Part shown: in pieces, positions 10,401 through 63,832 of the stretch | How the letters are laid out: every line of letters starts with the position of its first letter | Numbering within the stretch: the stretch's first letter is position 1 | Source: Mytilus galloprovincialis | Lineage: Eukaryota > Mollusca > Bivalvia > Mytilida > Mytilidae | Direction: 5' to 3' | DNA: 64,000 bases | Assembly (NCBI RefSeq): GCF_965363235.1 | Contig: NC_134838.1 | Span: forward strand, 6,267,001-6,331,000 | Notes under the pieces: generated by a model | Databases searched by the model: none | Told to the model about the DNA's origin: nothing | What the model saw: the letters and a program-made list of their open reading frames with translations, nothing else | Program-made: the position numbers and the translations under genes

Positions 10401-13400
10401 AGGGATTAACAGTTTTCCTAATTTAATTGGCATATATGAATGTAACATTTTTTTTTATCTTTTTCAGACAAAGTTATGACGTAGACATATAATGTTATAT
10501 TTGTTATCTTTTCAGACAAAGTTATGATGTAGACATAGAATTGAATATTCCAGGAACCTCATCTAAATCTCAAAATACATTGGATCTTAAAAATCCTTTC
10601 TTCCGATACACAGGCCAGCAACCATCACCTCCTCCAGGAACTAATAACACATCACCCACAGATAATTACTGGAATTCAACAATGCTTAGTAAGTCATTTA
10701 TTAATTAATCTTAGTTTAATATACAATTATTTTTTTCCTGTCACACAAAAATAGTATAAAATGTGGTGTCAATCAGGATTTTTCTTTGGATATTTCATTT
10801 ACCAATTACCTATACCTTAATATTGTGTAGATCTCTTGCAAGTACTGTTCTATCATCATGTCTTTTAACAATAACATTTGGCTAAGCTGTCTAGGTTAAT
10901 GAGACTTTGCACAAATAAGATATAAAATTAATTAAGAAAAGTATTTATTATAAGCACTTTTAATTTTTTTCTCTAACTGAAAAACCTTCAATACATTTGT
11001 ACATGGATATATAGCATATTTCGTCAGGATGATAAACCTTGAATACATCTATCATGTTTAATCATGATAAATATACATGTTTATGATAAATTTTTATTTC
11101 TGTATTATAGATCAGACAAACTATATGAATGGAATTTTAAACGGTATGCAGGACCAACAAACAGTACAAATTTTAAATCAACAAGGAGTTATACAACAAA
11201 ACCTCATCCCTGTGTGTAAGTTTAGTTACTAAAGTCAAATTACTTTAATATATAATTCAAGGTAAGGATACAGTATAGGTTTTCTATCTCTTTTATGGAC
11301 AAATTGTATGTTATTGTTGTAAGAAAAAAACTGAAAACCTGTGTCTAGGTATACGTAATATTGGTTTATGAAAGGTTATGGTAACTGATAATTGTTCTTA
11401 TTTGTTGCCTTATAGAGCAATTTGTAATAAAAATTTATAGTATAGTCCCAAGAAAAGGTTGATGCTAAGTGTATAGACAGATAGTGCAAGTTTGTTGTGA
11501 TAGTAAAATTAAAAGAAAGAAAGAAATCTGAATATTTGAAATGTGTTTTTTAGCTCACCTGGCCCAAAGAGCCAAGTGAGCTTTTCCCATCACTTTGCGT
11601 ACGTCGTCGTTGTCATCCGTTGTTAGCTTTTAAAAAATCTTCTCCTCTGAAACTACTGGGCCAAATTAAACCAAACTTGGCCACAATCATCATTGGGGTA
11701 TCTAGTTTAAAAAATGTGTGGCGTGACCCGGCCAACCAACTAAGATGGCCGCCATGGCTAAAAATTGAACATAGGAGTAATATGTAGATTTTGGCTTATA
11801 ACTCTGAAACCAAAGCATTTAGAGCAAATCTGGTAAAATTGTTTATCAGGTAAAGATCTATCTGTCCTGAAATTTTCAGACGAATCGGACAACCGGTTGT
11901 TGGGTTGCTGCCCCTGAATTGGCAATTTTAAGGAAATTTTGCTGTTTTTGGTTATTATCTTGAATATTATTATAGATAGAGATAAACTGTAAACAGCAAT
12001 AATGTTCAGCAAATAAGATTTACAAAAAAGTCAACCTGACCGAAATGGTCAGTTGACCCCTTTAGGAGTTTTTGCCCTTTATAGTCAATTTTTAACCATT
12101 TTTCGTAAATCTTAGTTATCTTTTCAAAAATCTTCTCCTCTGTCCTTTATAGTCAATTTTTAACAATTTTCATAAAATTTGTAAATTTTTATTAACATTT
12201 TCCACTGAAACTACTGGACCAAGTTCATTATAGATAGAGATAATTGTAAGCAGCAAGACTGTTTGTAAAGTAAGATGTACAAACACATCACCATCACCAA
12301 AACACAATTTTGTCATGAATCCATCTGCTTCCTTTGTTTAATATTCACATAGACCAAGGTGAGCGAGCGACACAGGCTCTTTAGAGCCTCTAGTTTTATT
12401 ACTTATTGAAAATGAAATTTACACCAGATGCTCAGCAATGGTGTTATTTAGTAAATGTTAGTTTTGGCTGCAGTAAAAAATATTGTTTGGTTATCATGGT
12501 GTATTGCAGTAAAGAATTACTGTTAAATTATCATGGTGCATTGCATTAAATAATATTGTTAAGTTATCATGGTGCATTGCAGTAAATAATATTGTTAAGT
12601 TATCATGGTGCATTGCAGTAAAGATTTACTGTTTACCATTACAGCAAATATCTCAGCACCAATAAATCCAGGTAGCATCCCCAGTGTTATTAATTTGGTT
12701 AGTGCTCATGCAAACAGAACATCCGTGGGCGGAGGAATTAGCCCACTTAACTTCGCACAAACACAATCACAGGTCAGAACATTTGTAGTCAACCCAGTGT
12801 TTATGTAATACGTTTTTTTTCTGGCACTTTTTTTTATTACTTTTACTTTCAAAATTTTATGTTTTTTGTTAGCGTTGCAAGAATCATTTAATTTTGACAT
12901 GGTCAGATTTTATTGAATTGAAATTTAAATTTTAATCTTAACCCTCAAAAAAGAAATTCCTGCTCACCTTATGATATTCTGTGGATAGGCATTAGATTTA
13001 TTATCGAAAAGTCACTTATATTTTATTTATTTTAATACTTTATCCAATTAGTTTTATGAACGGAAAAGTGAAAATGAGTTAATTTCATTAAAGGGAAGTA
13101 ATAAAAGATAATTTCCATTAAATGGAAGGATTGACCATGCCAAATTTATTTGAGTACTAACATAGTTTTATTAAATGATGCTTATTAAAATATATATAGA
13201 TCTTGCATGTGTGAACAATTGAAGCTAGATTGCTTCCACTGTGTTACAGGTTTTTCTGATTCTAGTAGTTTTAAGCAATACAAGTCATACTGGACATATC
13301 AAAAGATAACATAAGTTAATTCATGTTTGAAAGGCTAAATTATAAAAGTCAGTTTTATTTGTTTAATTTCTGTAAAACTGAAAAAAGATTTTTTTTTTAT

Positions 13401-62580: not shown

Positions 62581-63832
62581 ATGCCCCACCTACGATAGTA
62601 GAGGGGCATTATGTTTTCTGGTCTGTGCGTCCGTTCGTTCGTTCGTCCGTCCGTCTGTTCGTTCGTTCGTTCGTCCGTCTGTCCCGCTTCAGGTTAAAGT
62701 TTTTGGTCAAGGTAGTTTTTGATGAAGTTGAAGTCCAATCAACTTGAAACTTAGTATACATGTGCCCTATGATATGATCTTTCTAATTTAAATGCCAAAT
62801 TAGAGTTTTGACCCCAATTTTACGGTTCACTGAACATAGAAAATGATAGTGCAAATTTCAGGTTAAAGTTTTTGGCTTCAGGTTAAAGTTTTTGGTCAAG
62901 GTAGTTTTTGATAAAGTTGAAGTCCAATCAACTTGAAACTTAGTATACATGTGCCCTATGATATGATCTTTCTAATTTAAATGCCAAATTAGAGTTTTGA
63001 CCCCAATTTTACGGTTCACTGAACATAGAAAATGATAGTGCAAATTTCAGGTTAAAGTTTTTGGCTTCAGGTTAAAGTTTTTGGTCAAGGTAGTTTTTGA
63101 TGAAGTTGAAGTCCAATCAACTTGAAACTTAGTATACATGTGCCCTATGATATGATCTTTCTAATTTAAATGCCAAATTAGAGTTTTGACCCCAATTTTA
63201 CGGTTCACTGAACATAGAAAATGATAGTGCAAATTTCAGGTTAAAGTTTTTGGCTTCAGGTTAAAGTTTTTGGTCAAGGTAGTTTTTGATGAAGTTGAAG
63301 TCCAATCAACTTGAAACTTAGTATACATGTGCCCTATGATATGATCTTTCTAATTTAAATGCCAAATTAGAGTTTTGACCCCAATTTTACGGTTCACTGA
63401 ACATAGAAAATGATAGTGCAAATTTCAGGTTAAAGTTTTTGGCTTCAGGTTAAAGTTTTTGGTCAAGGTAGTTTTTGATGAAGTTGAAGTCCAATCAACT
63501 TGAAACTTAGTATACATGTGCCCTATGATATGATCTTTCTAATTTAAATGCCAAATTAGAGTTTTGACCCCAATTTTACGGTTCACTGAACATAGAAAAT
63601 GATAGTGCAAATTTCAGGTTAAAGTTTTTGGCTTCAGGTTAAAGTTTTTGGTCAAGGTAGTTTTTGATGAAGTTGAAGTCCAATCAACTTGAAACTTAGT
63701 ATACATGTGCCCTATGATATGATCTTTCTAATTTTAATGCCAAATTAGATTTTTACCCTATTTCACGGTCCATGGAACATGGAAAATGATTGAGTGGGGC
63801 ATCCGTGTACTTTGGACACATTCTTGTTTTAA
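62581..63832 (+). mobile_element. ATGCCCC-hairpin tandem-core element (copy 3), six 189-bp units
   Basis: The head hairpin ATGCCCCACCTACGATAGTA..GGGGCAT is followed by a (CGTTCGTCCGTC)n stretch. GGTCAAGGTAG recurs at 62705, 62894, 63083, 63272, 63461 and 63650, exactly 189 bp apart. The unit is the 168-bp unit of copy 2 plus a 21-bp internal duplication of TTAAAGTTTTTGGCTTCAGG. Units 2-5 look identical. The tail ends GGGGCATCCGTGTACTTTGG..CTTGTTTT. No coding is recognisable from 63833 to the window end. Confidence 0.9.

What the first reader, a model, noticed from the sequence alone, without database searches (positions are those of the whole stretch)
11551..63832. Five unrelated repeat families share one architecture
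Families headed ATGCCCC, AGCTCACC, TGTCGAGCC, TATACCCCCGC and ACGACCGC each have a terminal hairpin, usually then a CGTC/CTGTC-rich stretch, a core of tandem units (168/189, 500, about 145, 169, about 150 bp) and a tail. In most, the tail holds a third copy of a hairpin arm (GGGGCAT, GGTGAGC, GGGGGTAT) and ends in CTTGTT- or CTAGTT-like sequence. Insertion is next to T runs. No sequence similarity joins the families. The nearest known plan is that of Helentron-associated/pearl elements read from the hairpin end. The third-arm rule looks like a replication or cutting signal shared by the group.
Basis: partly seen in the sequence, partly recalled or inferred. Interest (0 to 1): 0.72.

Follow-up and report, generated by a model that had tools for sequence, protein, structure and literature searches.

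The report
Mussel-like genome's non-autonomous Helentron (HINE) families
The five repeat families are ordinary members of a known class of rolling-circle jumping DNA, and one of them was traced to a full-length copy that encodes the moving enzyme, so the shared 'third arm' is a known end signal whose detailed pairing pattern in two families suggests how the ends may recognise each other.

Summary
All five families are HINEs (non-autonomous Helentrons): T-rich flank, 5' hairpin, usually a CGTC microsatellite, tandem core, 3' subterminal inverted repeat (the 'third arm'), small palindrome, CT(T/A/G)G, then T. This plan is published for Drosophila DINE-1, oyster Cg_HINE and Helitron2, with a hypothesis for the third arm (PMC2374699, PMC4067079, PMC7492417, PMC3627910).

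New here: (1) a 16,766-bp copy with the AGCTCACC family's head, 500-bp core and tail around a Rep/PIF1-helicase/endonuclease-like ORF; joined flanks exceed its empty sites by 2 nt in 14 of 15 units, with no other duplication. (2) Two further empty sites, one in the window, mostly +1 nt. (3) The third arm complements the outer hairpin arm beyond what it shares with the inner one in A, B, D and E; C is an exception with 2 mismatches. (4) In A and B, outer-arm position 8 is mismatched inside the hairpin (paired in 0 and 1 of 100 listed heads) but matched by the third arm (100 and 98 of 100 listed tails).

Verdict: new members of a known kind. Rolling-circle movement is inferred. The conserved mismatch is the only part I did not find in what I read. 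Partners of A, C, D and E were not found.

The parts
49648..50089 (+). Family A element 1, complete; 5' hairpin 49648-49676, 3' subTIR 50057-50065, palindrome 50068-50082, end CTTG 50086-50089 then TT
   Evidence: core 168-bp units
62581..63826 (+). Family A element 2, complete; hairpin 62581-62609, CGTC microsatellite 62621-62684, 189-bp units 62686-63790, 3' subTIR 63794-63802, end CTTG
19017..21130 (+). Decayed family A element split by a nested family C element
   Evidence: head-like match 32/36 at 19015 and tail 32/35 at 21096; A core either side
19274..20965 (+). Family C element nested in the A core at a T run; degenerate head at 19274, intact C head at 19774, tails near 20868 and 20936; empty site in the A core units
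42348..43412 (-). Family C element 2 (head 43376-43412, tail 42348-42376)
11552..12393 (+). Family B element 1; hairpin 11552-11582, 3' subTIR 12357-12364, palindrome 12374-12389, end CTAG 12390-12393
55586..58345 (+). Family B element 2 with 500-bp units; damaged hairpin, tail GGTGAAAG + palindrome + CTAG
29906..31605 (-). Family B element 3 (head 31576-31605, tail 29906-29939 ending CTTG), 500-bp units
61259..61729 (+). Family D element; hairpin 61259-61289, 169-bp units 61341-61666, 3' subTIR 61687-61697, end CTTG 61726-61729
52781..54655 (+). Family E element; head hairpin 52781-52821, tail 54619-54655 with 3' subTIR TGCAGTCGTATA and end CTGG; a sixth-family (F) tail lies inside it at 53581-53618

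Best explanation
The five families are HINEs: non-coding elements moved in trans by Helentrons (Rep/helicase/endonuclease rolling-circle transposons) resident in the same AT-rich, mussel-like genome. Shown here: the shared anatomy; insertion in T runs without target-site duplication (one site each for the family B autonomous copy, a B HINE and a C HINE); and, for family B, a full-length element with B's own head, core and tail around the enzyme gene. Inferred, following the published Helitron2 proposal: Rep nicks at the 5' T|hairpin junction and peels off one strand; the 3' palindrome and CTNG end mark termination; and the 3' subTIR pairs with the outer arm of the 5' hairpin, opening that hairpin and bringing the two ends together. 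The tandem core is cargo that grows and shrinks.
For: Anatomy in 5 of 5 families. Own-tail complementarity in 4 of 5. Empty sites: the 16,766-bp B element in a B core unit, 15 empty units, +2 nt against 14 and +1 against one; nested B HINE, 10 of the 15 matching rows aligned, +1 nt against nine and +2 against one; C HINE in an A core, 6 chosen A units, +1 nt against each. TT before the head in 31 of 31 family A heads in held DNA (all chosen by an exact 18-nt head match); TT after CTTG in 14 of 14 A copies with a tail found (the tail pattern itself required CTTG, and 17 of the 31 heads had no tail matched in their locus). Autonomous B: head at L073:213 on C1, and B repeats running into unique sequence at the C1 and C2 loci; 3' end AAGGTGAGC...GGGTCCTTGGACCC-TCTAGTT, where the two copies diverge; Helitron_like_N, DUF6570, PIF1 and PF04843 above cut-off; the C-terminus aligns with the PF03372-positive protein of another Helentron of this genome. 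B hairpin positions 9-14 are paired in 94-99 of 100 listed heads, with both-side changes at position 11 (10 heads) and 14 (21 heads). PF14214 has 138 matches in the genome, some of them pieces of one gene.
Against: Family C's third arm is imperfect. Partners of A, C, D and E were not found. In the B partner the endonuclease reaches only a sub-threshold Pfam hit (PF14529, 20.8 of 27.4 bits) and no PDB match. The C2 copy was not followed to its 5' end. No empty site was found for A, D or E; of 19 joined flanks only one gave a usable outside empty site. No circular intermediate, strand bias or activity was tested. The +1/+2 nt cannot be told from a 1-2 bp T duplication.
Confidence: 0.93

Rival explanations
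1. MITEs or foldback elements moved by a cut-and-paste transposase; hairpin and third arm are degenerate terminal inverted repeats.
For: Short inverted repeats at both ends, no coding capacity seen, very high copy number; DINE-1 was once filed so (PMC2374699 passages). A 1-2 bp T duplication is not excluded.
Against: The 3' repeat is separated from the end by a palindrome plus CTNG; no target-site duplication beyond 1-2 ambiguous bases at three empty sites; family B ends surround a Rep/helicase ORF.
Confidence: 0.03
2. Canonical Helitrons (Helitron1) with tandem cargo.
For: Rolling-circle enzyme; 3' palindrome; B and E end in CTAG and CTGG, which fit CTRR.
Against: A, C and D end in CTTG; no 5' TC; a 5' hairpin and inverted 3' repeat are present; insertion in T runs, not A|T; endonuclease-like part after the helicase.
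Confidence: 0.03
3. The third arm is a plain copy of the inner hairpin arm (for example a protein site present in three copies), not a pairing partner of the outer arm.
For: Inner arm and tail share 6-8 nt in A, B, D and E; family C fits neither reading well; in B and C the outer arm pairs with the tail no more strongly than with the inner arm.
Against: Where inner and outer arm disagree, the tail follows the outer arm: A position 8 (hairpin partner A 98 and G 2 of 100 listed, tail T 100 of 100 listed), B position 8 (hairpin partner A 94 or T 6 of 100, tail G 98 of 100); runs 11 against 8 in D and 12 against 8 in E.
Confidence: 0.25

Closest known systems
Cg_HINE elements of Crassostrea gigas (PMC7492417; abstract, sections 7, 8, 9 and passages read)
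   Same: 5' subTIR + complementary IR, mostly 4-nt microsatellite (GTCY-like in several), satellite-like central repeats, 3' subTIR + palindrome, T-rich target, no target-site duplication; several families unrelated in sequence within one genome.
   Different: Other sequences and species; here one family is tied to an autonomous element, and the 5' mismatch against the 3' match is counted.
DINE-1 / HINE and Helentrons (PMC2374699 passages; PMC4067079 abstract, passages and section 6)
   Same: 13-bp subTIRs, partial IR beside the 5' subTIR, 3' stem-loop, TT insertion, no target-site modification, autonomous Rep/Hel/endonuclease partner with the same ends. Some Drosophila subTIRs begin TATACCC, like family D.
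   Different: In the mite HINEs the subTIRs are themselves palindromic; the central repeats differ.
Helitron2 with asymmetric TIRs (PMC3627910 passages and section 9)
   Same: 5' ATIR forming a 5' hairpin, 3' ATIR just upstream of a 3' hairpin, compensatory changes, and the proposal that 5'-3' ATIR pairing destroys the 5' hairpin and sets the replication endpoint.
   Different: Helitron2 proteins are described as lacking the endonuclease (PMC4067079 passage); family B's partner has an endonuclease-like C-terminus.
Pearl / MgE of Mytilus galloprovincialis (Kourtidis 2006, not read; named in PMC7492417 and PMC4067079)
   Same: Described in PMC7492417 as of comparable architecture, in a mussel.
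   Different: Sequence identity with families A-E could not be checked.

Membership tests
HINE (non-autonomous Helentron) | 5' subTIR and adjacent complementary IR (5' hairpin) | tested here: met
   5 of 5 families; 100 listed B heads
HINE (non-autonomous Helentron) | microsatellite next to the 5' end | tested here: met
   CGTC/CTGTC stretch seen in A, B, D and E; not in C, which has only a GGC-rich stretch
HINE (non-autonomous Helentron) | central tandem repeats | tested here: met
   for A, B, C and D; one search reported no array for E
HINE (non-autonomous Helentron) | 3' subTIR complementary to the 5' subTIR | tested here: met
   4 of 5 (A 9, B 8, D 11, E 12 nt); C 7 of 9 only
HINE (non-autonomous Helentron) | 3' palindrome | tested here: met
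   folds of A-E tails: stems of 4-6 bp in B, C and D, interrupted in A and E
HINE (non-autonomous Helentron) | insertion in TT / T-rich DNA without target-site duplication | tested here: met
   (families B and C); A only by flanks; D and E not tested
HINE (non-autonomous Helentron) | autonomous Helentron with the same ends | tested here: met
   family B only; none found for A, C, D and E
Helentron (the family B partner) | endonuclease domain fused C-terminal to Rep/helicase | tested here: inconclusive
   sub-threshold PF14529; 33% alignment over 713 columns, C-terminus included, with a PF03372-positive Helentron protein; no PDB match
Helitron1 (canonical) | 5'-TC, 3'-CTRR, A|T insertion, no 5' hairpin | tested here: not met
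MITE | terminal inverted repeats and constant target-site duplication | tested here: not met
   a 1-2 bp T duplication cannot be excluded
Helentron/HINE | rolling-circle transposition with a single-stranded or circular intermediate | not testable with these tools
   no reads or assays

The most novel reading that the evidence does not exclude
HINE/Helentron ends carry a built-in strand-exchange switch. The 5' hairpin keeps a deliberate mismatch that weakens it (position 8 in A and B; the outer stem breaks after 8-9 pairs in D and E), while the 3' subTIR is complementary through that position, so that end-to-end pairing can displace the hairpin and license termination and joining. Unrelated families in one genome keep the same asymmetry with different letters.
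Probability: 0.3. Interest if true: 0.5.

Novelty: new member of a known kind. Interest (0 to 1): 0.3.

Why it matters
It settles what these very abundant repeats are (thousands of copies of single families) and ties one of them to its enzyme source, with both ends fixed by empty sites. Unrelated families sharing one end logic in one genome make the 2013 idea, that 5'-3' ATIR pairing opens the 5' hairpin, testable by covariation: copies with a changed outer arm should carry the matching change in the 3' subTIR.

Tried and rejected
A DNA-similarity search of the genome with an A core returned nothing; the tool skips very common words, so this says nothing about rarity.

Linking other families to Rep genes: the flanks of a C12/C14 Helentron group (OTU, PF04843, Rep, PIF1, PF03372) and of a C5/C2 group gave no A, C, D or E ends belonging to the element; downstream pieces of two more groups (L075, L076) gave no tail. 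A promising D head upstream of the B-partner ORF proved to be a D-head/A-tail chimera inserted there, not the element's own end.

Automatic scan for head, hairpin and third arm in the first three loci gave mostly AT-rich chance hits. Automatic scan for palindrome + CTNG gave many chance hits.

Energy test of the switch: outer arm with tail against outer arm with inner arm (kcal/mol, DNA parameters): A -12.9 / -10.2, D -15.5 / -10.9 and E -15.5 / -10.4 favour the switch; B -12.2 / -12.8 is neutral; C -8.0 / -10.3 is against.

Core similarity between families: 10 comparisons; B-D exceeds all 200 shuffles (score 40, largest shuffle 38), A-C is reached by 3 of 200 and A-B by 6 of 200, so 'no sequence similarity' is nearly but not strictly shown.

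The N14 palindrome pattern was one base too long and found only 21 variants, so it was not used. Literature: searches; the position-8 mismatch was not in the passages and sections read, but figures and supplements were not seen.

Full report
What is there.

Anatomy. Each family has, in T-rich flank, an imperfect hairpin (outer arm, loop, inner arm), then usually a CGTC/CTGTC microsatellite, a tandem core, and a tail. Heads and tails match only their own family: longest complementary run 9 (A), 8 (B), 11 (D), 12 (E), against at most 7 for any foreign pair; C gives none of 5 or more (for E the head came from L050 and the tail from L057, two different copies). C's two central differences are usual: 86 of 100 listed tails read GGCGAGACA and none the exact complement, against heads of which 95 of 100 listed read TGTCGAGCC; both counted by eye.

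Abundance. Counts with reversed-pattern controls of zero: A head 9,133 and A tail 11,469 at up to 3 mismatches; B tail 12,312 at up to 3 mismatches; B head 8,585, C head 3,811 and C tail 1,601 on exact patterns with free positions. Patterns differ in length and tolerance, so head and tail numbers should not be compared. D and E were not counted.

Target sites. All 31 family A heads found in held DNA by an exact 18-nt match follow TT; 14 of them had a tail matched in the same stretch (the pattern required CTTG) and TT follows in all 14; 17 had none. Three natural empty sites were examined. The full-length B element sits in a B core unit that is intact in 15 other places; joined flanks exceed 14 of them by 2 nt and one by 1 nt, in a T run. 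A B HINE nested in B core DNA has two more T but one fewer flanking base, a net +1 nt against nine of ten aligned units and +2 against one (10 of the 15 matching rows were aligned). In the window itself a C element splits an A element at a T run, +1 nt against each of 6 A units chosen. None shows a duplication of non-T sequence. No empty site was obtained for A, D or E.

The autonomous partner of family B. Of 138 Rep-domain matches, three groups were read outwards over 18 kb each, with pieces of second copies. For the one at C1:86,686,890 the 5' end is the B head (L073:213) followed by B's 500-bp repeats running straight into unique sequence; the same repeat-unique junction occurs in a second locus on C2, whose own head lies beyond what was fetched. 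A stop-to-stop open frame of 2,656 codons (L063:2128 to L064:2095) holds PF04843, DUF6570, Helitron_like_N and PIF1 above cut-off. Its C-terminus aligns, as part of a 713-column, 33% identical alignment, with a second Helentron group whose PF03372 endonuclease passes its cut-off; on its own it reaches only a sub-threshold hit and no PDB match. The 3' end is B's subTIR, a palindrome GGGTCC-TT-GGACCC in place of GGCTCT-TT-AGAGCC, and CTAGTT, where the two copies diverge. Element length is 16,766 bp from AGCTCACC to CTAG. No partner was found for A, C, D or E.

What the third arm matches. If the tail merely repeated the inner arm it should share the inner arm's departures from the outer arm. In A, B, D and E it does not. 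In 100 listed B heads, outer position 8 is C in 98, its hairpin partner is A (94) or T (6), and it is paired in 1, while positions 9-14 are paired in 94-99, with both-side changes at positions 11 and 14. In 100 listed B tails the base opposite position 8 is G in 98. In 100 listed A heads position 8 is A facing A (98) or G (2), never paired; in 100 listed A tails the base is T in all. The figures were counted by eye. These listings are the first 100 exact matches, all on contig C1, to patterns that fix the neighbouring bases, so they show conservation, not independent events, and heads were not paired with their own tails. D and E extend the outer-tail match 3-4 nt beyond the run shared with the inner arm. 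Predicted energies favour outer-tail pairing in A, D and E, are neutral in B and oppose it in C.

Mechanism. The best-supported reading is rolling-circle movement by a Helentron enzyme acting on its own and on non-autonomous copies. Steps shown: ends, target, lack of duplication beyond 1-2 ambiguous bases, partner for B. Steps inferred: nicking at the T|hairpin junction, strand transfer, and termination at palindrome and CTNG. That 5'-3' pairing opens the 5' hairpin and sets the endpoint is the proposal of PMC3627910 (section 9 read). The conserved mismatch is what that proposal would predict if the hairpin must be easier to open than the end-to-end duplex, but a protein-binding reason is not excluded.

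Comparison with what is known. PMC2374699 (passages) describes DINE-1 with 13-bp subTIRs, a partial IR beside the 5' one, a GTCY microsatellite, unrelated central repeats, a 3' stem-loop and TT insertion. PMC4067079 (abstract, passages, section 6) links these to Helentrons. PMC7492417 (abstract, sections 7-9, passages) finds 11 such elements in oyster, several unrelated to each other, and names the mussel element MgE. PMC5148889 (passages) reports joined ends for one fungal relative. So neither the architecture nor the third arm is new. What I did not find, in the searches and in the parts read, is the position-specific mismatch and match count; figures and supplements were not seen.

Score. 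A specialist would not be surprised by the architecture; the partner link and the mismatch pattern are useful. Interest 0.3.

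Noticed in passing
window 53581-53618 and about 49252-49290: A sixth family (F): tails GGGGGCATCATCTGTG...GGACAC..TTCCCC. In shuffles its tail is similar to those of A and D (0 of 300 reach each), so the families are not all unrelated. Head not found.
   Followed up: partly
L063:1180-1720 (C1:86682069-86682609): D head fused to an A core and tail inside the B autonomous element; the C2 copy lacks the D part but has A there. 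Probably an insertion followed by a deletion, not a mobile chimera.
   Followed up: partly
C2:32801964-32804439 (4465-6940 of joined L074+L069): An E-family element inserted upstream of the ORF of the C2 copy of the B autonomous element; the C1 copy lacks it.
   Followed up: partly
L059:1500 and L073:212: An A HINE and the B autonomous element are inserted at the same point of B-core-like DNA (..AATTTTGCCATTTTT|), suggesting a recurrent target inside the repeats.
   Followed up: no
L061/L062 (C12:41759700-41777699) and C14 copy (L067, L068): A second Helentron group with an open frame of 3,020 codons (PF04843, OTU, Rep, PIF1, PF03372); near where the copies diverge its 3' side carries CAATTGTTC-TCT-GAACAATTG before T-rich DNA, a different end type. 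5' end not reached.
   Followed up: partly
L001, L002 (C5:47637747, C6:6159351): Two Rep matches score far above the rest (215 and 199 bits against 128 or less); possibly canonical Helitrons.
   Followed up: no
window 22004-22457 and 23926-24424: Tandem arrays with 53-bp (8.6 copies) and 71-bp (7 copies) units, not part of the five families.
   Followed up: no
window 61259; literature: Family D's outer arm TATACCC begins like several Drosophila DINE-1 subTIRs (TATACCCTTGCAG etc., PMC2374699 table), a possible deep constraint on the end sequence.
   Followed up: no
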